From Mycobacterium sp. Marseille-P9652 (GTDB taxonomy: Bacteria > Actinomycetota > Actinomycetes > Mycobacteriales > Mycobacteriaceae), in NCBI RefSeq assembly GCF_902652685.1, contig NZ_CACRUY010000004.1, positions 62,001 to 126,000 on the forward strand: 64,000 nt of DNA, in the 5' to 3' direction. Below the pieces are notes generated by a model that was not told the DNA's origin, did not search any database, and saw nothing but the letters and a program-made list of their open reading frames with translations. A program made the position numbers and the translations under genes. The first letter of the stretch is position 1. Every line of letters starts with the position of its first letter. Positions 9,514 to 64,000 of the stretch are shown piece by piece.

Positions 9514-11856
9514 TTGGCGACCTTCGGCGGCGAGTTGCTGGCCGTCGCGCTCGCAGGCACCACGGCCGGCGAGCATCCGCTGCGCCACGTCGCCGAATTG
9601 CCCGCCCGCGGCGGGCGGCCGAGCAGCTGGCCAGAGTGGGCAGAGCCCGACGTCGTCCGCGCGTTCGCCGACCGGGGCATCACCCGACCGTGGGATCACC
9701 AGCGCACGGCCGCCGAGCTGGCCCACGCGGGCCGGCACGTGGTGATCAGCACCGGCACCGCGTCGGGCAAGTCGCTGGCCTACCAGCTGCCCGTCCTCAA
9801 CGCGCTGGCGACGGACCCGCGGGCCCGCGTGCTGTACCTGTCGCCCACCAAGGCGCTGGGGCACGACCAGCTGCGGGCCGCCCACTCATTGACCGCCGCG
9901 GTTCCCCGGCTGAACGATCCGCGTTTGGCGGTGGCGCCCACCGCGTACGACGGCGACACCGCAACGGAGGTGCGCCGATTCGCCCGCGAACGGTCGCGGT
10001 GGTTGTTCTCCAATCCCGACATGATCCACCTGTCGATCCTGCGCAACCATCCGCGCTGGGCCGTGTTCCTGCGCGGCCTTCGGTTCGTGGTGGTCGACGA
10101 ATGTCATTACTACCGTGGCGTGTTCGGCTCCAACGTGGCGATGGTGCTACGACGCCTGTTGCGCTTGTGCGCGCGGTATTCGGCCAGCCCGACGGTCGTG
10201 TTCGCCAGCGCCACTACGGATTCCCCGGGCGCGACGGCCGCCGAGCTGATCGGGCTGCCGGTCGAAGAGGTCGTCGACGACGGCTCGCCACAGGGGGCGC
10301 GCACGGTCGCCTTGTGGGAACCCGCGCTTCGCGACGACCTCGTCGGCGAGAACGGCGCGCCGGTGCGCCGCGCCGCCGGGGCCGAGGCCGCGCGGGTGAT
10401 GGCCGACCTGATCGCCGAGGGAGCCCAGACTCTCACCTTCGTCCGGTCGCGGCGCGCCGCCGAACTGACCGCCCTGGGTGCGCGGGGGCGACTGGCCGAC
10501 ATCGCGCCCGAATTGGCGGACAAGGTGGCCTCATACCGCGCCGGTTACCTCGCCGAGGACCGCACCGCGCTCGAGCGCGCCCTGGCCGAGGGGCGGCTGC
10601 GGGGCCTGGCCACCACCAACGCCCTGGAGCTGGGTGTCGACATCGCCGGCCTGGACGCGGTGGTGTTGGCCGGCTTCCCCGGCACGGTGGCGTCGTTCTG
10701 GCAGCAGGCCGGCCGATCGGGCCGGCGCGGCCAGGGCGCGCTCGTCGTGCTCATCGCCCGCGACGACCCCTTGGACACCTACCTCGTCCACAATCCCGCC
10801 GCGCTGTTGGGCAAGCCGGTGGAGCGGGTGGTGATCGACCCGGCCAACCCATATCTGCTGGGTCCCCAATTGCTCTGCGCGGCAACCGAACTCCCGTTGG
10901 ACGAAACGGAGGTCCGCGACCTGGGCGCCACGGAGATGGCCGCGGATCTGGTGGAGGAGGGACTGCTGCGGCGGCGCAACCGGCACTACTATCCCGCGCC
11001 GGGTCTGGAACCCCATGCCGCCGTGGACATTCGGGGCTCGACGGGCGGTGAGATCGTCATCGTCGAGGCGGGCACCGGGCGGTTGCTGGGCAGCGCGGGC
11101 GTGAGCCAGGCCCCCGCCTGCATCCACCCCGGGGCGGTCTACCTGCATCAGGGCGAGACCTACGTCGTCGATTCCCTGGACACCCAGGACCAGATCGCGT
11201 TCGTCCACGCCGAGGACCCCGGCTATTCGACGTTCGCGCGCGAGATCACCGACATCGCCGTCACCGGAACGGGTGAGCGCCTCGAGTTCGGTCCGGTCAC
11301 GCTGGGCCTGGTGCCCGTGACGGTGACCAACCAGGTCGTCGGCTACCTGCGCCGCCGGCTCAACGGCGAAGTCATCGACTTCATCGAACTCGACATGCCG
11401 GCCAGCACCCTGCCGACCACCGCCGTCATGTACACGATCGCCCCTGAAGCGTTGTCGCTCAACGGCATTGATGCGCCGCACATTCCCGGGTCGCTGCACG
11501 CCGCCGAACATGCGGCCATCGGCCTCCTGCCCCTGGTGGCCAGTTGCGATCGTGGCGACATCGGCGGCCTGTCCACCGCGATAGGCCCCGACGGGCTCCC
11601 CACCGTCTTCGTCTACGACGGGTACCCGGGCGGGGCCGGCTTCGCCGAGCGGGGCTTCCGGCGGGCGGCCACGTGGCTGGGCGCCACGGCCGACGCCATC
11701 GAGGCGTGCGAGTGCCCACGAGGATGCCCCTCGTGCGTGCAGTCACCCAAATGCGGCAACGGCAACGACCCGCTGGACAAGGCCGGGGCCGTGCGGGTGC
11801 TGCGACTGGTGCTGGGCGAGTTGGGCGAGCGCCCCTGGGCGTCCCGCGGGGCTTGA
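9514..11856 (+). CDS. DEAD/DEAH-box ATP-dependent helicase, Rv3649-like (Hrq1/YprA type)
   Basis: 780 residues, superfamily 2. Motif I is STGTASGKS, motif II is VVDECHYY (variant of DEAH), motif III is FASATT and motif VI is QQAGRSGRRG. A C-terminal four-cysteine cluster (CECPRGCPSCVQSPKCG) is the DUF1998-like zinc module of the MrfA/Hrq1 family, which act in DNA repair and tolerance of DNA crosslinks. The start is uncertain. AAGGAGG at 9499-9505 is 8 nt from TTG 9514 but only 2 nt from GTG 9508, so TTG 9514 is preferred. Confidence 0.93.
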   Translation: MATFGGELLAVALAGTTAGEHPLRHVAELPARGGRPSSWPEWAEPDVVRAFADRGITRPWDHQRTAAELAHAGRHVVISTGTASGKSLAYQLPVLNALATDPRARVLYLSPTKALGHDQLRAAHSLTAAVPRLNDPRLAVAPTAYDGDTATEVRRFARERSRWLFSNPDMIHLSILRNHPRWAVFLRGLRFVVVDECHYYRGVFGSNVAMVLRRLLRLCARYSASPTVVFASATTDSPGATAAELIGLPVEEVVDDGSPQGARTVALWEPALRDDLVGENGAPVRRAAGAEAARVMADLIAEGAQTLTFVRSRRAAELTALGARGRLADIAPELADKVASYRAGYLAEDRTALERALAEGRLRGLATTNALELGVDIAGLDAVVLAGFPGTVASFWQQAGRSGRRGQGALVVLIARDDPLDTYLVHNPAALLGKPVERVVIDPANPYLLGPQLLCAATELPLDETEVRDLGATEMAADLVEEGLLRRRNRHYYPAPGLEPHAAVDIRGSTGGEIVIVEAGTGRLLGSAGVSQAPACIHPGAVYLHQGETYVVDSLDTQDQIAFVHAEDPGYSTFAREITDIAVTGTGERLEFGPVTLGLVPVTVTNQVVGYLRRRLNGEVIDFIELDMPASTLPTTAVMYTIAPEALSLNGIDAPHIPGSLHAAEHAAIGLLPLVASCDRGDIGGLSTAIGPDGLPTVFVYDGYPGGAGFAERGFRRAATWLGATADAIEACECPRGCPSCVQSPKCGNGNDPLDKAGAVRVLRLVLGELGERPWASRGA

Positions 11857-54680: not shown

Positions 54681-55676
54681 ATGCCGGGCCCGGGAAAAGG
54701 CATTGAGGTCGAAGGCATCTGCAAGTCGTTCGGTTCGGTCACTGCGCTGCATGACGTCTCCTTCGACGTGGGCCGCGGCGAGGTCGTCGCTCTGCTCGGC
54801 CCCAACGGGGCCGGCAAGACGATCACCGTGGAGATCCTGGCGACGCTGACCAAGCCGGACCGGGGGCGCGCACGGGTGGCCGGCCACGACGTCGTCGCCG
54901 AACCGGCGATGGTGCGCCGCTCCATCATGCTGACCGGTCAGCACGTCTCGCTCGACGAGATACTCACCGGCTACGAGAACCTGATGATGTTCGGCCGTCT
55001 GCACGGCCTGGACAAGGCAGCGGCCGGGGCCAGGGCCCGCGAACTGCTGCGGGACTTCGGCCTCGAGGACGCAGCCGACCGCCGAGTGGCCACCTACTCG
55101 GGCGGCATGCGCCGCCGTGTGGACATCGCCTGCGGGCTGGTGGTCCGGCCCGAGGTGGTGTTGCTGGACGAGCCGACCGCCGGGCTGGATCCACGCAGCC
55201 GGCGGGCCATTTGGGAATTGATCGCCACGCTGAAGGGCGCGGGCATCGCGACGCTGTTGACCACCCAGTACCTCGAGGAGGCCGACGCGCTGAGCGACCG
55301 GGTCGTCGTGCTCGACGGCGGCAGGATCGTCGCGCAGGGCACCGCGGAGGACCTCAAGGAGCGCATCGGCGGGACCTTCTGCGAGTTCGTGCCCAAGAAT
55401 CCCGCTGACGTCGGCGCCATCGCCCAAGCCCTGGGCCCGCTGCTGCCGGAGACCAGCCGGGCCGCGGTCACCCCGGAGTCCGACCGCGTGGTCATGCCCG
55501 CCCCGGACGGTGCGGACACGCTGGCCGTCGCCTTGACGCGAATCCACTCCGCGAGCATTGACTTGGCCGAAATCGCCCTGCGCAGGCCCTCACTCGATGA
55601 CGTGTTCCTCTCGTTGACCGGACATGCCGAGGGCGGCGGTGCCCGAGCGGCCGACGCGGACGGGGCCGCCTTGTGA
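54681..55676 (+). CDS. DrrA-type ABC exporter ATPase
   Basis: 331 residues, the length of M. tuberculosis DrrA. Walker A GPNGAGKT, signature YSGGMRRR, Walker B VVLLDEPTAGLDP and LLTTQYLEEAD are typical of the daunorubicin-resistance type. The DrrA C-terminal domain ends RRPSLDDVFLSLTG. ATG 54681 is chosen; GTG 54660 is an alternative. It powers export of a lipid or drug-like molecule with the two permeases. Confidence 0.93.
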   Translation: MPGPGKGIEVEGICKSFGSVTALHDVSFDVGRGEVVALLGPNGAGKTITVEILATLTKPDRGRARVAGHDVVAEPAMVRRSIMLTGQHVSLDEILTGYENLMMFGRLHGLDKAAAGARARELLRDFGLEDAADRRVATYSGGMRRRVDIACGLVVRPEVVLLDEPTAGLDPRSRRAIWELIATLKGAGIATLLTTQYLEEADALSDRVVVLDGGRIVAQGTAEDLKERIGGTFCEFVPKNPADVGAIAQALGPLLPETSRAAVTPESDRVVMPAPDGADTLAVALTRIHSASIDLAEIALRRPSLDDVFLSLTGHAEGGGARAADADGAAL

Positions 55677-57313: not shown

Positions 57314-58234
57314 TCATCTGGCGAGACCCTGGCCGACGATGCTCAGATAGAAGACGACGACGAAGAGGGTCGGCAACACCTTGGGATGATCGCGTGCCCG
57401 GGCGTGCAGGAAACTCCACGCTGACACCAGCGGCAGGGCCGCGGTCGAAAGTGGCAGCCACGCCAGCGGCCACCGCGGCCCGGCCCATGACCACGGCATG
57501 GACACCAGGATCTCCGCGACCACCGCGAAAAGTCCGGCGCCGCAGGCCAGTAACGCACTGGCGGTGACCCCGAGCAACTCCGAGTAGGAATGCGGGTCGT
57601 CCCCCACCGCGCCCGCACCGGCCGCCCGCGCGATCTTCCTGGCGAATTCCGCATGCAGCAGTGCGCCGGTGAACACCAACGGCACGCCGGCGAGCCGCCA
57701 CCACGGCGCCTCACCGATCCCGGGACAGCCGGTCATCGCGAACCCCGTGGCCAGGAACTGCGCCGGGCAGACCGCGACCAGGTTGACGATTGCGTTGTCC
57801 CGCAGGAGGTTCCACTTGGTCTCCAGCCACCACACCGCCAGGCTGTACGCCAGGGTGGCGGCGAGCAGTGCGACGGCCCAGCGCGACACCGCGACGGCCA
57901 GGGCCAGCGCGGCGGCGGCCGCCGGAACCATCGCCGCGCGAAGTTCACCCGTGGTGATCCGGCCCTGCACCAGCGGTCGCGTCGGGTGGTGAAGCGTGTC
58001 GTAGTCGAGATCCTTCTGATCGTCGACCATCCGCATGAAGGCGCCGGCCGCCATCAGCGCCAGCGCCTTCGTAGCGGTACCCCACGACGGTCGCCACGGG
58101 CCGGCCGATCCCGCGATGACGACGGTGAGGCTCTCGGCCGCAACCACCCACAGCGCCAGATAAACCGGGTAGACGGGGAGGCATCGCTCGACGAGGAAGG
58201 CTCCGATGCGCCCGGCGCGCGCGGAAACCGTCAT
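57314..58234 (-). CDS. UbiA-family prenyltransferase
   Basis: 306 residues with 8-9 membrane helices. The first Asp-rich motif is MVDDQKDLDYDTLHHPTRP, close to the NDxxDxxxD of UbiA proteins, which bind an allylic diphosphate through Mg; the second motif is less clear (VGDDPHSYSE). The last gene of the operon, ATGA-coupled to the AfsA-like gene. The prenyl acceptor is unknown. Confidence 0.85.
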   Translation of the reverse strand: MTVSARAGRIGAFLVERCLPVYPVYLALWVVAAESLTVVIAGSAGPWRPSWGTATKALALMAAGAFMRMVDDQKDLDYDTLHHPTRPLVQGRITTGELRAAMVPAAAAALALAVAVSRWAVALLAATLAYSLAVWWLETKWNLLRDNAIVNLVAVCPAQFLATGFAMTGCPGIGEAPWWRLAGVPLVFTGALLHAEFARKIARAAGAGAVGDDPHSYSELLGVTASALLACGAGLFAVVAEILVSMPWSWAGPRWPLAWLPLSTAALPLVSAWSFLHARARDHPKVLPTLFVVVFYLSIVGQGLAR

Positions 58235-59178
58235 CGCGGGGGATCTGCTCCACCGGGGTCGTCCGCGGCGACGAAAGCCAACTCCACCGTGGCCCTCGTG
58301 TGACCGGACTGGTGCACCTCTCCGCGGAAAGCCAGCGCGTCGTCGGCGGGTGTCAGCGCGACGCTGCTCACCGCATCCAGTTCCGCGAACGAGTGGAAGT
58401 CGCATCGGAGCCGGGTCGGTCCAACGGTGGTCGCGGCCCGCGGCCCCAGCCCGGCTAGCGAAAGTTGCCGGAACGCCTCGAGAATCAGGCCGCCGGGCAG
58501 GTGGTCGAGCGGGTGGTCGAAGAACGTCGGATTGTGGATGTCCACCACGACGGGCGCACAAACCGAGCCGTCGGCGCCGACGCGAACCGGCTCGCCGATC
58601 ACCACGTTGGCCGGGCGCGTCCGGCCCACGGTCGGCGGATCGGTCGGCGACGGTTGCGCCACCGGTTCCCAGCTCGATCCGGCGCGCATGCGCAGCCAGG
58701 ACTCCTCGGAAACCCAACCGAATGCGCCGGACAGCTCCATCGCCTTCGTCCCGCCCCAAGTCGCTGTCGCGGCGACGTCCAGACCATGGATCCGGCCGTG
58801 CTCGGATCGCCGAAACTCCTTTCGGACAACGGTATCGAACTCGACGTCGAGGTGTTCCGGCCCGGCACCGAGCGCGGCCAGGTCCAGAACGGAGAACTCG
58901 TAGTAACGGACCGTGTGGTGGAAACCGAGAGGCACGTCGTACAGGAGATGGCTGGCGGCGATGCACCCCTGGCGCAGACCCTCGAGCAGGAGAAGGGGAT
59001 CGTAGTAGCCCGATCGGCGGCCGGCGCAATCCGCGTGGAAGCCGTGCCGGCCGGGCAGCCGGGCGTGCGCTGTCCACCCGTTCGCGTCGGCGACCACGGA
59101 GCTGACGAAGGCTTCGGCGGGCGCATGCTTGTGCGTCAGCCGCGGCGCGACCGCGTGAAATCCGTTCTCCTCGTTCAC
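58231..59178 (-). CDS. AfsA-type double-hotdog protein
   Basis: 315 residues. Two hotdog repeats: the first has HGFHAD and YYDPLLLLEGLRQG (~45-71), the second has FFDHPLDHLPGGLILEAF (219-236), the diagnostic AfsA/ScbA motif. AfsA condenses a beta-ketoacyl thioester with dihydroxyacetone phosphate to start gamma-butyrolactone synthesis in Streptomyces. GTG 59178 is used. The neighbouring ACP could present the acyl chain. The actual reaction here is inference. Confidence 0.88.
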   Translation of the reverse strand: MNEENGFHAVAPRLTHKHAPAEAFVSSVVADANGWTAHARLPGRHGFHADCAGRRSGYYDPLLLLEGLRQGCIAASHLLYDVPLGFHHTVRYYEFSVLDLAALGAGPEHLDVEFDTVVRKEFRRSEHGRIHGLDVAATATWGGTKAMELSGAFGWVSEESWLRMRAGSSWEPVAQPSPTDPPTVGRTRPANVVIGEPVRVGADGSVCAPVVVDIHNPTFFDHPLDHLPGGLILEAFRQLSLAGLGPRAATTVGPTRLRCDFHSFAELDAVSSVALTPADDALAFRGEVHQSGHTRATVELAFVAADDPGGADPPR

Positions 59179-59191
59179 CTTCGTCTCGCTC

Positions 59192-59995
59192 TCATCGTCG
59201 ATGCATCGGCAAGTAGGACGCCTCGATCACGGTGCTGAACCAGGGATCGAGGCGAACACCACGCCGGCTCGCCTCGTCCAGGGCGCCCAACCACTCGCCC
59301 CCGGAGCGCGGGCGTTCCGTGATGCCAATTCGCGTCAGTTCGGCGCAGATCGCGTCCTGCGCTGCCGCGAGGTCACCGCTGCGGCGGTCCAGGCCCGACT
59401 CGATGCGGTCGACTATTCTGAACGCCTCGGCTGAGGCGTCCGCACCGGTCGCACACTCCGAAAGGACCTCGCTGAGCAGGGGTTCGGCGAAATAGATGCT
59501 GAGCTCGCGCAGAACATCGTCGGGGTTGTCGGGCGTGTGGATCAGATTGAGCAGGTACGTTCCGGCGCCCAGTTCATGCCGCAGCTGACCCGGTTCCCTG
59601 CGCGCCGGGTCGGCGGGCCCCTTGTCGGCGGTCAAGCGGACGGAGACGGGCTGAGCATCGTCGGGATGGGTGACGACCAGGACCACGGCCGGCGACAGGC
59701 CCGCGAGCCGGTCGGCAAGCCGTCGCCGCTCGCGGGTGGCGTCGTGCCAGTTGAAGTACCAGAGGGCGCGGATGTGCAACCCCGTGAACCGCACGGGGTA
59801 AGCGCCGACGATTCGGTATCCATGGTCGAGAAGCCACGTGACGGCGGGCCGCATCGCGCCGGTGATGGCGGCATCGGGCTTCAGGAGCAGCAGGGCGTTC
59901 CGGCGAGCGAACGCGTCGCGGTCAATCTGCAGCGCGGCCAGGGCGTCGCACGTCTCCAGGAAGTAGGTGTCGCGGTCATACCGTCGGTCGGTCAT
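59192..59995 (-). CDS. Divergent nucleoside-diphosphate-kinase-like protein with extra C-terminal domain
   Basis: 267 residues. Residues ~33-172 follow the NDK fold: LLLLKPDAA (K39), KGPADPARREPGQLRHELG (R139) and NLIHTPDNPDD (N150, H153), with the catalytic His retained although the usual HGSDS is HTPD. Residues 173-267 are a helical extension not seen in housekeeping NDK. It may be a phosphotransferase dedicated to the pathway. ATGA overlap with the SDR gene. Confidence 0.8.
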   Translation of the reverse strand: MTDRRYDRDTYFLETCDALAALQIDRDAFARRNALLLLKPDAAITGAMRPAVTWLLDHGYRIVGAYPVRFTGLHIRALWYFNWHDATRERRRLADRLAGLSPAVVLVVTHPDDAQPVSVRLTADKGPADPARREPGQLRHELGAGTYLLNLIHTPDNPDDVLRELSIYFAEPLLSEVLSECATGADASAEAFRIVDRIESGLDRRSGDLAAAQDAICAELTRIGITERPRSGGEWLGALDEASRRGVRLDPWFSTVIEASYLPMHRR

Positions 59996-61068
59996 CGACC
60001 GCTCCTCATCAGTTGCAGCTCGGCCAGCACGTCGGCCACCGTGGGCTCCGCGCTACCCAGATAGCCTGTCTGCAAGCAGGAATCGAGGACGCGCCGCATG
60101 TATCCGGCCCCTATCGGCGGAGGCACCACGCCGAGCCGCTCGCGGGCGTTCGTGCTGTCGAAGTGTGGGCGGCGACGCAGATACGTCGTGTACAGCGACC
60201 CGACCTTGTGGAAGTACGCACGTTCGATGTCGTCCAGATCGTCGGGGCTGAAGGTGCTCGGGGGCACCAGATCGACCATCCGGAGGCTGGGATATTCGGC
60301 GAGCACGTCACTCATCGACCGCAGGGAAACCTCGTTCGCGCCCACCGCGTGAAAGGTGTGGCCGACGTTGTCCCCGAACCGCTCCACGGCGCTGACGACG
60401 GTGTCCGCGACATGTCCGATCGGGGACAGCGCCAGGGTGGCCGCATAGTTGCCGGGCAGTGTTCGCATCTTGCCTTCGGCGATCAGCTTCAGCACCGGGT
60501 AGATGTGCTTGTGCACACGGCTGTGACCGGTGCGGTACTCGCCCGACACGATCCCGGGCCGCACGACGGCCCACCGCTGCGGGGCCGCCCGCACGAGCTG
60601 CTCGGCCCGGAATTTGCTTCGCTCATAGTCGTTTCCGAAAGGCTGACCGATGTCGAGTTCATCCTCCCGGAACGTCCCGTCGAATTCACCGCACACGTAG
60701 GCCGTGCTGACGTAGATGATTCCGGCGTCCCAGCTCCTCGCCACCTCGAGCGCGTTCGCCGTCCCGTCGACGTTCAGCTCGGTGTACCGGCTCTCGGACA
60801 GACCGAATTCGGTCAGCGCGGCGCAATGGACAATCAGCCCGACCCGGTCGACCAGCCACGAGAACAGCTTGCGATCGAGTCCGAAACCCGGACTGCGGAC
60901 ATCTCCGCGCAGCACCTGCGCCGGATGTGCGGGACGGCCGTTGTTGGCGATGATGCGGACTTCGTCGTGCACCAGGGCGACGACGTCGTGACCGCGCCCG
61001 GTCAGGCGGTGGACCACCTCGGCGCCGACGTGTCCGGCGGCTCCCGTCACGAGCACCGCCGTCTTCAC
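59992..61068 (-). CDS. Extended SDR, thioester-reductase-like
   Basis: 358 residues. The NAD(P) loop is TGAAGHVG, the catalytic residues are S121 (YVSTAYVCGE) and Y148/K152 (NDYERSKFRAEQ). The pattern and the VVRPGIVSGEYRTG segment are like the NAD-binding-4 domains that reduce acyl thioesters to aldehydes or alcohols. The adjacent ACP would be its carrier. GTG 61068 overlaps the ACP stop. Epimerase or dehydrogenase function is possible. Confidence 0.85.
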   Translation of the reverse strand: MKTAVLVTGAAGHVGAEVVHRLTGRGHDVVALVHDEVRIIANNGRPAHPAQVLRGDVRSPGFGLDRKLFSWLVDRVGLIVHCAALTEFGLSESRYTELNVDGTANALEVARSWDAGIIYVSTAYVCGEFDGTFREDELDIGQPFGNDYERSKFRAEQLVRAAPQRWAVVRPGIVSGEYRTGHSRVHKHIYPVLKLIAEGKMRTLPGNYAATLALSPIGHVADTVVSAVERFGDNVGHTFHAVGANEVSLRSMSDVLAEYPSLRMVDLVPPSTFSPDDLDDIERAYFHKVGSLYTTYLRRRPHFDSTNARERLGVVPPPIGAGYMRRVLDSCLQTGYLGSAEPTVADVLAELQLMRSGR

Positions 61069-61307
61069 GACGAACCCCGTTGCGACCGAACAAGATCGAC
61101 GAGATCGCCGACGGTGGACACACCGGCAAGCGATTCGGGGGTGAGCGGCGGCAGGCCGAACGCGCGCTCGAGGGCGATCGACAGCTCGAGGAAACGCAGC
61201 GAGGTGTACCCGAGGTCGTCCATGAAGGTGTCCTGAAGGTGAGCATCATCGGCGGCTGGGGCCATGGCGGCGACCAGGGCGAGCACCTCCTTCTCGGTGA
61301 CGCTCAC
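61065..61307 (-). CDS. Acyl carrier protein
   Basis: 80 residues, four-helix ACP. The phosphopantetheine Ser is in DDLGYTSLRFLEL. Acidic, no fused domain. GTG 61307 overlaps the stop of the ligase gene (GTGA). It is the expected acceptor of the acyl-AMP made by the upstream enzyme. Confidence 0.9.
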   Translation of the reverse strand: MSVTEKEVLALVAAMAPAADDAHLQDTFMDDLGYTSLRFLELSIALERAFGLPPLTPESLAGVSTVGDLVDLVRSQRGSS

Positions 61308-64000
61308 CGCCGCTCCCCCGGTTGGGCGCCGCCACTGGCCAACAGATCCCGCGTTTCGTCGAGTTCGACGTCGGCGTCGAGATATGCCCCCATCCGCAGC
61401 CACTGGTACCCGCGGCGCAGCGTCCGCTGCCACTCTTCCCGCGACGCGAATGACGCGGGGAACGCCTCTCCCCCGGTGGCCTGCCGCACCCGCGCGACGA
61501 ATGTGTCGAGTTCCGATTGGGCGCGGAGGGCTCCATCGCGATCCCGGATCGGCAGGTGCACCAGATCGCGCGCGGTCCGGGCCAGGTCGCGATGTCCGGG
61601 CACGAGCTGCTCGAGGGTGTCGAACAGCACCGGGTCGCCCGGCAGGGGGGTGATTCCCCACGCGCTGGCGAGGATGCGGACCGCCATGACTGCTATGCGG
61701 CGCGCGCACAGCGACGTCACGCGCCATTGTTCGTCCTTGACCGCGCCGTCGAAGTCCTCGCGTGCGTTCTCCAGCACCATGTTGGCCAGCATCAACGCAC
61801 CCGCGCATTCGGCGAACGCCCTCGCGCGCAACGGGGATCGCGCGATGTCGCCGTCGGTGGGGGCGCCGTCGATCGTGATCACCGGCCGTCGCGTCGACGG
61901 CAACGGGGTCAGGGGTCGGTCGGGCTCGCACATCGCGGCCGCCGGCCGGATCAGCCCGGCGCCGCGCCACGCCAGGGCGATGAGCCCGTGCCGGGCGAAC
62001 AGCCGGACGTGCCGGCTCGCCGCCTTGGTGGAGGCGAGCGTCTGGCCGAACACCACGCGCCGCCAGGAGTCGGCGCACGCGGCGGACAACACGAACACGT
62101 CTTCGTCCCGCACAACGTGCGTGGTGGCCCCTATCGGCCACGTCGTCACCCCGGGGACGCGCCTGAGGATGACGTTGGCGGGATCGAACGTGACCGTCGG
62201 GGCGCCGAGCCGCGCCGCCAGGTCGTGCAGCCGCGCGGTCAACTCCCGGCGGCCGCCCGCCGCGGTGGGCGCGTAGTCGAGGGCCTCGTACTCGTCGAGC
62301 AGTTCGGTGGTGGCGCGGTCGGCTTGCCTTCGCAGCCGGGCGATCTGTTGCGGGAGCCACTTGATCTCGAGGTAACCCTCGCCGTGTTCGGCGAGGAAGG
62401 CTTTCATGGCCTGCGCCAACCCTTCCCGGGCCCAGCTGGCCGCCTCGTCCTCGTGGTCGAGGGCGACGAGGGCGGCGCTGTGGCGCAGGCAGTGGGCCGA
62501 CCGCTTGCGCCACCACGTGGCGGTGAGCCCCGTCGCCTCCCGATAGGAGACGATGTCCAGGAGTTCCCCGTATTGTGGCCCGACGCGCAGGGGCACGCCC
62601 CGAAGGAATCGCTGGACGCGGTTGAGCAGATCCTCCGTGACGCCCTTCAGCGAGCCGCTGTCGATCGCTGTCCTGACCCGCAGCAGCCGCTTGCGCGCCT
62701 GATCGTGTGACTGGGCGCGGATCTCGACCCGGTGGCCGTCGACGAACAACACGGTCGGCATGACCGCGTGCTTGGCCGATCCCGGAACCAGCAGCAGGAA
62801 GTCGATGTCGGAGCAAGCATTTCCGAATCCCTCGGCCAGCGAGCCCTCGAAATGGACCGTGGCGTCGTCGGGCACCACCGCCATTGCACGCGCGCGGTCG
62901 AACAGCGCGCGCACCTGGTCGAGCTCGCGCGACGGGTGGCGGGGATCCCGGACCGCCAGCAGTTCCGACCCGGTGAGCCGCCCCGACCGCCATTGCTGCC
63001 AGAGGTATGACCGGCGGGGCTTGCCGCTCGACGTTCTCAGCAGTCCGCCGCGGGGAACGCTGATGAACCACAGTGGCGTGTCGTCACCGGCGTGCGCGCG
63101 CACGGCCGTGATTCCCGCGCGCACCGCGCCGGCGGGCATGGGCGCTGAGGACCTTTCGAACACCACCGCGACACCTGGCACGTCACCGTCGTTGACGGCG
63201 ACGGTGACGAGCCGGCCCGGGCGCAGGGCCATGGCCTCGGTCGCGGCGACATCGAGGTCCTCGGCGAACACGGTGCGCCCGTTGACTTTCAGGCTTGTTC
63301 CCATCCGGCCGAGCACATGCAGCTGCCCGTCCAGCAGGAAGCCGGCGTCGCCGGTGCGGAGGTCACCGCGCTCGAACCGTGTCGCGCCAGCCGGGTCGCC
63401 GCGGTAGCCCTCCGCCACGCACGGTCCGGAGAGGACGATTTCACCGAGAGCACCCTCGGACGCTGCGGCCCCGGACTCATCGACGATGCGGACGGCGTGG
63501 CCGGGTATCGGCCGGCCGACGGAGACGATCCAGTCGGGTGACGGTTCGGCAGCCAGCCCGTCGTCGGTGCGCCCGAGCACCTGGACAGGCCGTCCGGGCC
63601 GAAGCGCCGTTCGGTCGATGCGGGTCATCCGGATGGGCTCGCCGAGACGCTGGCCGGTGGCGATCAAGGTCATCTCCGCCAGTCCGTACGACGGGAGGAA
63701 GGCTGACGGTGAAAAGCCGTGGCCGGCAGTCAACTCGGTGAACGCCCGCAGGTGAGCGGGATTGATCCGGTCGGCGCCGACCACCATCGTGCGCAGGCCG
63801 GACAGGTCGAGGTCACCGAGATCCTGTGGTGTGAGCCGGCGGCTCACGTACTCCAGGCCAAATGACGGCGAGACGGTGTGCTCCGCGAGGGCCGCCGCCT
63901 GCAGCCATCGAAGGGGGTCGCGGATGAACTGGTCCGGACGAAGCAGGCGCACCTCGTACTGGCCGGGAACGGACAGGAACATCCCTCCGATCAGGCCCAT
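61304..64000 (-). CDS. Fatty acyl-AMP ligase fused to a nucleotidyltransferase (5' end outside window)
   Basis: 898 residues in the window; the frame is open at the edge, where the sequence is already inside the HDMGLIGG region, so ~200-300 residues are missing. FAAL part: TVSPSFGLEYVSRR, SYGLAEMTL, RTGDAGFLLDGQLHVLGR, SSGKPRR (A10 Lys). From ~window residue 375 a Pol-beta-type nucleotidyltransferase follows: FEGSLAEGFGNACSDIDF with the GS...SDID metal motif and a later VEIRAQ acid. A long helical region then leads to the end. This fusion is not one I recognise. Confidence 0.85.
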   Translation of the reverse strand: MGLIGGMFLSVPGQYEVRLLRPDQFIRDPLRWLQAAALAEHTVSPSFGLEYVSRRLTPQDLGDLDLSGLRTMVVGADRINPAHLRAFTELTAGHGFSPSAFLPSYGLAEMTLIATGQRLGEPIRMTRIDRTALRPGRPVQVLGRTDDGLAAEPSPDWIVSVGRPIPGHAVRIVDESGAAASEGALGEIVLSGPCVAEGYRGDPAGATRFERGDLRTGDAGFLLDGQLHVLGRMGTSLKVNGRTVFAEDLDVAATEAMALRPGRLVTVAVNDGDVPGVAVVFERSSAPMPAGAVRAGITAVRAHAGDDTPLWFISVPRGGLLRTSSGKPRRSYLWQQWRSGRLTGSELLAVRDPRHPSRELDQVRALFDRARAMAVVPDDATVHFEGSLAEGFGNACSDIDFLLLVPGSAKHAVMPTVLFVDGHRVEIRAQSHDQARKRLLRVRTAIDSGSLKGVTEDLLNRVQRFLRGVPLRVGPQYGELLDIVSYREATGLTATWWRKRSAHCLRHSAALVALDHEDEAASWAREGLAQAMKAFLAEHGEGYLEIKWLPQQIARLRRQADRATTELLDEYEALDYAPTAAGGRRELTARLHDLAARLGAPTVTFDPANVILRRVPGVTTWPIGATTHVVRDEDVFVLSAACADSWRRVVFGQTLASTKAASRHVRLFARHGLIALAWRGAGLIRPAAAMCEPDRPLTPLPSTRRPVITIDGAPTDGDIARSPLRARAFAECAGALMLANMVLENAREDFDGAVKDEQWRVTSLCARRIAVMAVRILASAWGITPLPGDPVLFDTLEQLVPGHRDLARTARDLVHLPIRDRDGALRAQSELDTFVARVRQATGGEAFPASFASREEWQRTLRRGYQWLRMGAYLDADVELDETRDLLASGGAQPGERR

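What the first reader, a model, noticed from the sequence alone, without database searches (positions are those of the whole stretch)
57314..64000. Coupled operon of acyl-AMP ligase/nucleotidyltransferase, ACP, SDR, NDK-like, AfsA-like and UbiA-like proteins
Five of the six genes are joined by ATGA or GTGA overlaps (the sixth by 13 bp), so they form one pathway. Acyl activation, an ACP carrier, a thioester-reductase-like SDR, an AfsA-type condensing enzyme, an NDK-like phosphotransferase and a prenyltransferase would be a plausible route to a prenylated or phosphorylated acyl lipid or butyrolactone-type signal. I do not know a described mycobacterial system with this set.
Basis: partly seen in the sequence, partly recalled or inferred. 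Interest (0 to 1): 0.88.

Follow-up and report, generated by a model that had tools for sequence, protein, structure and literature searches.

The report
Salinipostin-type lipid operon in mycobacterium relative
These genes look like a version, in an unnamed relative of the mycobacteria, of the gene set with which marine Salinispora bacteria make salinipostins (signal-like phosphate lipids), here with a likely exporter beside it; the product itself has not been seen.

Summary
The operon is real and larger than reported. Seven coupled genes run on the minus strand: a RedH/PEP-synthase-like dikinase (outside the window), an acyl-AMP ligase fused to a nucleotidyltransferase, ACP, thioester-reductase-like SDR, NDK-like protein, AfsA-like double hotdog and UbiA-like membrane protein. 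All 30 other family loci found to hold the nucleotidyltransferase have all seven in this order. The same functions plus an F420-type oxidoreductase form a nine-gene run, AfsA ninth, in a genome whose contig length (5,183,331 bp) equals that printed for Salinispora tropica CNB-440. This fits the salinipostin (spt) operon as I recall it; the primary papers were not held. Best reading: an spt-like operon making a butenolide or butyrolactone phosphate-ester lipid, a variant of a known kind. Differences: the fusion, gene order, no reductase in the operon, an AfsA that may not be the ortholog of the Salinispora one, and a DrrABC-type exporter (linked in three genomes) where 15 of 17 other operon loci of the genus have a glycosyltransferase. 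The product is untested.

The parts
61304..64000 (-). fatty-acyl-AMP ligase fused to a nucleotidyltransferase domain (C-terminal about 550 aa, window 61304-62962); the CDS continues outside the window to window-equivalent 64639, where it overlaps by 13 bp a seventh gene, a RedH/PEP-synthase-like dikinase at about 64627-67344
   Evidence: AMP-binding PF00501 163.7 bits; best NCBIfam hits are fatty acyl-AMP ligases, below cut-off. NTase positions G40, S41, D52, D54, E80 identical in 34 of 34 aligned. Dikinase: PPDK_N 211.6 and PEP-utilizers 69.5 bits; NF004881 884 bits against cut-off 883
61065..61307 (-). acyl carrier protein, Ser36 pantetheine site
   Evidence: PF00550 34.7 bits; Ser in 33 of 33 aligned
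59992..61068 (-). SDR of the thioester-reductase / male-sterility kind, probably reduces acyl-ACP
   Evidence: PF07993 115.7 bits; TIGR01746 111.5 bits, below that model's cut-off; three Gly, Tyr148, Lys152 in 34 of 34, Ser121 in 33 of 34
59192..59995 (-). NDK-like phosphotransferase with a C-terminal extension, catalytic His153 kept
   Evidence: PF00334 39.2 bits over cut-off 27; K39, R139, N150, H153, E164 in 33 of 33
58231..59178 (-). AfsA-like double hotdog protein, butenolide-phosphate synthase candidate
   Evidence: PF03756 102.1 bits, two stretches; E66, R69, Q70, D221, H222, D225, H226, E234, R237, Q238 in 33 of 33
57314..58234 (-). UbiA-like membrane protein: first Asp-rich motif kept, second replaced by E-x-x-R-K
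   Evidence: PF01040 31.5 bits, under cut-off 34.2; D71, D75, D79, E196, R199, K200 in 33 of 33
54681..55676 (+). DrrA-type ABC exporter ATPase, linked exporter (start codon uncertain)
   Evidence: TIGR01188 363.5 bits over cut-off 312.45; relatives 76% and 71% identical lie upstream of the operon in L094 and L095
55673..56482 (+). DrrB/C-type ABC exporter membrane subunit
   Evidence: TIGR00025 177.1 bits over cut-off 146.9; 79% and 82% in L094, L095
56482..57300 (+). DrrB/C-type ABC exporter membrane subunit, converging on the UbiA-like gene with 13 bp between
   Evidence: PF01061 53 bits over cut-off 26.9; TIGR01248 139.7 bits, below its cut-off; 69% and 72% in L094, L095

Best explanation
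This is an spt-like (salinipostin-type) biosynthetic operon. Shown: the gene set, its order, tight coupling, conserved active-site positions, and the match to a nine-gene run in a genome with the contig length of Salinispora tropica CNB-440. Inferred: (1) the AfsA-like enzyme joins a beta-ketoacyl thioester to dihydroxyacetone phosphate, giving a butenolide phosphate; (2) the acyl-AMP ligase loads a fatty acid on the ACP and the SDR reduces it off as aldehyde or alcohol, giving a long alkyl chain; (3) the phosphate is kept: the dikinase, nucleotidyltransferase and NDK-like enzyme activate phosphate groups so that the UbiA-like membrane enzyme can join the alkyl chain to the butenolide phosphate, giving a phosphate diester or cyclic phosphotriester; (4) the DrrABC-type exporter carries the product out. 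Order and partners within step 3 are unknown.
For: Seven-gene order in 30 of 30 NTase-bearing family loci besides the window; 20 of those genomes turn up by the NTase alone, so AfsA was not a condition there. L104, a 5,183,331-bp contig, the length printed for S. tropica CNB-440 in PMC4712552 (table passage), holds dikinase 42%, ligase 38%, NTase 41%, ACP 42%, SDR 45%, NDK 40%, UbiA 32%, an F420-LLM oxidoreductase, then AfsA 30% as ninth gene; I recall the ninth gene, spt9, as the butyrolactone synthase. Dikinase passes NF004881 (884 against 883; L104 1490). The positions checked are invariant. Three TetR proteins adjacent to stand-alone AfsA genes (3 of 5 such loci) have no relative at E<=1e-4 in 30 of 30 family operon loci, L104, L003 or L004. 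Exporter linked in 3 of 3 genomes of one supported AfsA subclade (96/99).
Against: The product has not been seen. The AfsA protein does not group clearly with that of L104: holding 26 rows together (operon AfsAs, L096, L104 and L024, which has no operon) is worse by 7.2 log units, p-AU 0.044. No reductase lies in the window operon, so a butenolide rather than a butyrolactone could result, unless a nitroreductase relative elsewhere (6 matches, best 49% and 44%) serves. No beta-ketoacyl synthase is in the operon. Phosphate removal is not excluded: two HAD proteins from stand-alone loci have no relative in the operon loci, but HAD hydrolases of another kind lie upstream of the operon in 12 of 17 genus loci, and one lies about 3.6 kb upstream in L004 on the other strand; other phosphatases were not sought. 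Identity to the L104 proteins is only 30-45%. That L104 is S. tropica rests on length and gene order, not on a named record. The primary spt papers were not held.
Confidence: 0.72

Rival explanations
1. A classical gamma-butyrolactone autoregulator: the operon makes a free butyrolactone or butenolide signal, the phosphate is removed, and the other genes supply or modify its acyl chain.
For: AfsA Pfam match and intact motifs; HAD hydrolase genes upstream of the operon in 12 of 17 genus loci and near it in L004; I recall that the spt work reports both salinipostins and free butyrolactones from one operon.
Against: No relative of the TetR proteins found beside 3 of 5 stand-alone AfsA genes in 30 of 30 family operon loci or in L003/L004. 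NF041195 ScbA/BarX cut-off not reached (162.8 against 200; L104's own AfsA also misses it, 195.2, so this is weak). A dikinase, NDK-like, NTase and UbiA-like set is not needed for a free butyrolactone.
Confidence: 0.15
2. A prenylated or other membrane lipid unrelated to butyrolactones: the UbiA-like enzyme is a true prenyltransferase and the AfsA-like protein has another condensing role.
For: First Asp-rich motif invariant in 33 of 33; L105 (G1340) holds dikinase, NTase, ACP, SDR and a short membrane protein but no AfsA or NDK match, so the core can occur without AfsA.
Against: Second Asp-rich motif absent (E-x-x-R-K in 33 of 33), Pfam UbiA cut-off not reached, no prenyl synthase among the seven proteins; AfsA present in 20 of 20 family genomes found by NTase alone.
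Confidence: 0.08
3. A degraded or silent acquisition with no current product.
For: Patchy spread: 18 of 396 genomes of the genus drawn, own included.
Against: All seven frames open, the positions checked invariant in the copies aligned, overlaps conserved.
Confidence: 0.05

Closest known systems
Salinipostin (spt) operon of Salinispora (taken to be L104)
   Same: Dikinase, acyl-AMP ligase, nucleotidyltransferase, ACP, SDR, NDK-like, UbiA-like and AfsA all present on one strand; first six functions in the same order
   Different: Ligase and NTase fused (29 of 30 family loci); AfsA lies before UbiA; no F420-LLM oxidoreductase; exporter or glycosyltransferase added; AfsA orthology not shown
Cyclophostin / cyclipostins (Streptomyces bicyclic enol-phosphates)
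   Same: Predicted product class: butyrolactone-like ring fused to a phosphate triester with a long alkoxy chain (PMC6681047, passages)
   Different: No gene cluster for them was seen here; product of this operon unknown
AfsA/ScbA/GblA butyrolactone clusters (Streptomyces, Rhodococcus)
   Same: AfsA-type enzyme
   Different: No relative of the TetR receptor-type or GblE-type epimerase proteins of stand-alone loci beside it, apart from a weak epimerase match of L048 to its own SDR gene (PMC5735094 passages)
RedH/PigC prodigiosin ligases and rifamycin phosphotransferase
   Same: Architecture of the dikinase: ATP-grasp plus phosphohistidine domain, His motif in 33 of 33 loci; PDB relatives are PEP synthases
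   Different: Far below those models' cut-offs (330 against 1350; 260 against 999)

Membership tests
spt-like (salinipostin) gene cluster | Co-located dikinase, acyl-AMP ligase, NTase, ACP, SDR, NDK-like, UbiA-like and AfsA genes | tested here: met
   All eight functions in seven genes, as in L104; that L104 is spt is inferred
spt-like (salinipostin) gene cluster | Reductase gene (F420-LLM in L104) in the operon | tested here: not met
   No gene for one between the dikinase and UbiA genes; nitroreductase relatives lie elsewhere in the genome
spt-like (salinipostin) gene cluster | AfsA gene last and orthologous to spt9 | tested here: inconclusive
   AfsA is sixth of seven; p-AU 0.044 against one clade, long branch, group held one non-operon row
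spt-like (salinipostin) gene cluster | Product is a bicyclic phosphotriester | not testable with these tools
   No chemistry available
AfsA/ArpA butyrolactone signalling system | AfsA-domain protein with both hotdogs | tested here: met
   PF03756 102.1 bits, two stretches; motifs in 33 of 33
AfsA/ArpA butyrolactone signalling system | TetR-type receptor gene beside AfsA | tested here: not met
   No tblastn hit of three such TetR proteins at E<=1e-4 in L003, L004 or 30 family operon loci
UbiA prenyltransferase family | Pfam PF01040 cut-off and two Asp-rich motifs (motif rule recalled) | tested here: not met
   31.5 bits against 34.2; motif 1 present, motif 2 replaced
Nucleoside diphosphate kinase | Pfam cut-off and catalytic His with its partner residues | tested here: met
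   39.2 against 27; K39, R139, N150, H153, E164 in 33 of 33; PDB relatives are NDKs. NCBIfam equivalog cut-off not reached (29.8 against 155), so the substrate may differ
NF004881 'phosphoenolpyruvate synthase' subgroup | Curated score cut-off 883 | tested here: met
   884 bits, barely; scored with about 12 residues upstream of the start codon I chose

The most novel reading that the evidence does not exclude
Some members of this genus make and export their own cyclipostin-like serine-hydrolase inhibitor, of a compound class that acts against mycobacteria through lipid and cell-wall hydrolases, left at the butenolide level because no reductase is in the operon; the DrrABC exporter or the glycosyltransferase is the self-protection. 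The dikinase-NTase-SDR-UbiA core would be a portable module for making alkyl phosphate esters, with AfsA as an exchangeable head-group supplier, and the UbiA-like enzyme with its changed second motif would be a new kind of catalyst joining an alkyl chain to a phosphate.
Probability: 0.25. Interest if true: 0.78.

Novelty: new variant of a known kind. Interest (0 to 1): 0.52.

Why it matters
How salinipostins gain their phosphotriester is, as far as I recall, not fully worked out. Thirty compact relatives with the checked active-site positions invariant, plus variants lacking AfsA (L105) or the adjacent ligase (L096), define a minimal core for that chemistry and make it testable gene by gene. 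It also raises a concrete question: bacteria of this genus may make a member of a compound class reported to act against mycobacteria (PMC6681047, passages), with an exporter or glycosyltransferase as possible self-protection.

Tried and rejected
Considered and rejected: a new pathway type (the set matches L104); a true prenyltransferase step (second motif missing); the exporter as an unrelated neighbour (linked in L094 and L095 too).

Led nowhere: plasmid searches with the ligase-NTase (192 records, none covering 80% of the query) and the NDK-like protein (9 records) gave no operon; four hits were opened and list no AfsA gene. The one genome-contig scan returned a single Gordonia locus with AfsA alone. 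PDB sequence searches: nothing for AfsA, no usable hit for the NTase domain, weak for UbiA (E 0.14, a digeranylgeranylglyceryl phosphate synthase). A promoter/terminator scan upstream of the dikinase found nothing. Motif counts used patterns that were too strict, one of them wrong (AfsA 0 of 32); one search replaced them by alignment columns; only the dikinase His count is taken. Trees: one search left out four duplicate short loci; one search also left out L035 and eight near-copies, and its operon group held L024, whose contig (L106) shows AfsA but no operon. The short loci labelled stand-alone in the trees show only AfsA among eight operon queries.

In-print claim: library searches were. 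Of 42 papers holding 'salinipostin' 40 were listed and no listed title concerned a Mycobacterium or Nocardia producer. A Nocardia genome survey (PMC7413640, passages) counts butyrolactone clusters without naming salinipostin. The library is partial, so this does not show absence.
Full report
What is there. The window ends inside the ligase gene. The contig continues (window = G000:C4:62001-126000; stretches), and a seventh gene, a dikinase of the PEP-synthase/RedH/rifamycin-phosphotransferase architecture, overlaps the ligase start by 13 bp. Pfam and NCBIfam give: dikinase (PPDK_N 211.6, PEP-utilizers 69.5 bits; NF004881 884 against a cut-off of 883), AMP-binding ligase, ACP, SDR of the male-sterility/thioester-reductase kind, NDK, AfsA in two stretches, and a UbiA-like protein just under Pfam's cut-off. 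The second half of the ligase protein drew no family match of its own in Pfam, nor did its L104 counterpart in NCBIfam, but it carries a nucleotidyltransferase-type pattern, GS...D-x-D...E (assignment recalled).

Co-occurrence. The AfsA protein was searched in 301 genomes of the family: 86 matched. I fetched 24 loci around those matches, chosen mostly by score, so not a fair sample: 15 (L036-L050) hold all seven genes in the same order and 9 (L051-L055, L106-L109; L107 is a 7.7-kb contig) hold AfsA without the set. A profile of the nucleotidyltransferase domain (A3) then found 6 of 396 genomes in the phylum draw, 18 of 396 in the genus draw and 8 of 397 in the order draw; each draw counts the own genome, and the draws overlap. 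Besides the own genome these are 20 family genomes; 15 were newly fetched (L081-L095) and all 20 hold the seven genes in order. Together with the AfsA-found loci that is 30 of 30 NTase-bearing family loci. Outside the family three genomes were found: G477 (L096: dikinase, NTase, SDR, NDK, AfsA, UbiA, nitroreductase; no ligase or ACP match in the 20 kb), G1236 (L104: all, plus an oxidoreductase) and G1340 (L105: dikinase, NTase, ACP, SDR and a short membrane protein without a Pfam match, but no ligase, NDK or AfsA match; a thymidylate-kinase-like gene follows). So AfsA accompanies the NTase in 22 of 23 other genomes.

The match to a known system. L104 lies in a single contig of 5,183,331 bases. 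PMC4712552 (one table passage seen) prints that size for Salinispora tropica CNB-440. The locus reads dikinase, ligase, NTase, ACP (by tblastn), SDR, NDK-like, UbiA-like, F420-LLM oxidoreductase, AfsA: nine genes, AfsA last. From recall, not from a text seen here, the salinipostin operon spt has nine genes, its ninth, spt9, is the butyrolactone synthase, and spt-like clusters are widespread in actinomycetes (Kudo et al. 2020; Creamer et al. 2021; neither held). What I did see: reference-list entries for Creamer et al., a passage citing it for homologues across 12 phyla (PMC12114271), and passages on the spt family in Salinispora (PMC8609351). So the identification of L104 as spt is strong but inferred.

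Active sites. In alignments of 32 or 33 of the 33 loci (L036-L050, L081-L096, L104, L105; a locus is left out where the gene was not found) plus the window, the NDK set K39, R139, N150, H153, E164 is identical in 33 of 33; NTase G40, S41, D52, D54, E80 in 34 of 34; ACP Ser36 in 33 of 33; the three SDR glycines, Tyr148 and Lys152 in 34 of 34 and Ser121 in 33 of 34; AfsA E66, R69, Q70, D221, H222, D225, H226, E234, R237, Q238 in 33 of 33, F220 and G229 in 32 of 33; UbiA-like D71, D75, D79, E196, R199, K200 in 33 of 33, position 72 D in 18 and E in 15. The dikinase phosphohistidine motif is in 33 of 33 loci. That these residues are catalytic is general knowledge of the families, not tested.

How it may work. 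The ligase, ACP and SDR would supply a long alkyl chain; AfsA the butenolide phosphate; the dikinase, NTase and NDK-like enzyme would activate phosphate; the UbiA-like membrane protein, lacking the second Asp-rich motif, would join the parts. L105 suggests that this core can be used without AfsA. A control was made with stand-alone AfsA loci: the neighbours scanned are a TetR gene in L052, L053 and L055, with an epimerase gene in L053 and L055, and a HAD hydrolase gene in L051 (with a P450) and L054. No relative of those TetR or HAD proteins at E<=1e-4 lies in 30 of 30 family operon loci, L104, L003 or L004; a weak epimerase match in L048 lies on its own SDR gene, and L096 has a weak TetR match. 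Against a kept phosphate: a HAD hydrolase gene of another kind lies upstream of the dikinase in 12 of 17 genus loci (L036, L037, L081-L090; the piece in L036 has PF13242), and L004 has a HAD hydrolase gene at 10918-11742 on the other strand. So only the lack of the receptor type stands; removal of the phosphate is not excluded.

Differences and additions. Ligase and NTase are one gene in 29 of 30 family loci, two in L049 and in L104. A nitroreductase gene sits between AfsA and UbiA in 8 of 30 family loci (L038-L042, L044, L046, L050) and after UbiA in L096, but gave no match in the 17 other loci of the window's genus nor in L043, L045, L047-L049; the own genome has 6 matches elsewhere, best 49% and 44%. 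A glycosyltransferase gene follows UbiA directly in 15 of the 17 genus loci, and one lies 1 to 3 kb further on in 6 of the 13 other family loci. In the other two genus loci (L094, L095), which form a supported AfsA subclade with the window (96/99), a DrrABC-type exporter lies directly upstream of the dikinase on the same strand; its relatives in the window, 69-82% identical, lie on the other side and converge on UbiA. This linkage makes it the likely exporter.

Limits. AfsA orthology with L104 is doubtful (p-AU 0.044, long branch, one non-operon row in the group). No structure could be predicted. Nothing here shows a product. Cyclipostins are described as active against mycobacteria, and analogues of the class were crystallised with antigen 85 and TesA (PMC6681047, passages), which is why an exporter or glycosyltransferase beside the operon is of interest.

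Noticed in passing
L105 1539-12729: A genome of another family (G1340) has dikinase, NTase, ACP, SDR and a short membrane protein with a similar R-K motif, beside what read as a P450, a methyltransferase and an acyl-CoA dehydrogenase, and a thymidylate-kinase-like gene (PF02223), without AfsA, NDK or ligase matches: a possible AfsA-free use of the same core.
   Followed up: partly
L056, L057, L058 (plasmids of Streptomyces and Enterobacter chuandaensis): NDK-like proteins related to the operon's (26-36%) occur in other biosynthetic-looking gene sets with aminotransferase, nucleotidyltransferase or AMP-ligase genes.
   Followed up: partly
L051 and L054: Stand-alone AfsA genes with a HAD hydrolase beside them (in L051 also a P450) and no adjacent TetR match, unlike the TetR-linked type in L052, L053 and L055.
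   Followed up: partly
L036 50-818 and matches in L037, L081-L090: A HAD hydrolase gene lies upstream of the operon in 12 of 17 genus loci, in L036 followed by a polyketide-cyclase-like gene just under Pfam's cut-off; whether they belong to the pathway is open.
   Followed up: partly
L004 7632-9708 (upstream of the dikinase): A P450 gene and an Mrr-type nuclease gene on the same strand precede the operon; P450 genes also lie near the operon in L036 and L091.
   Followed up: no
L108 and L109: Genomes G258 and G271 hold a second AfsA gene away from their operon.
   Followed up: partly
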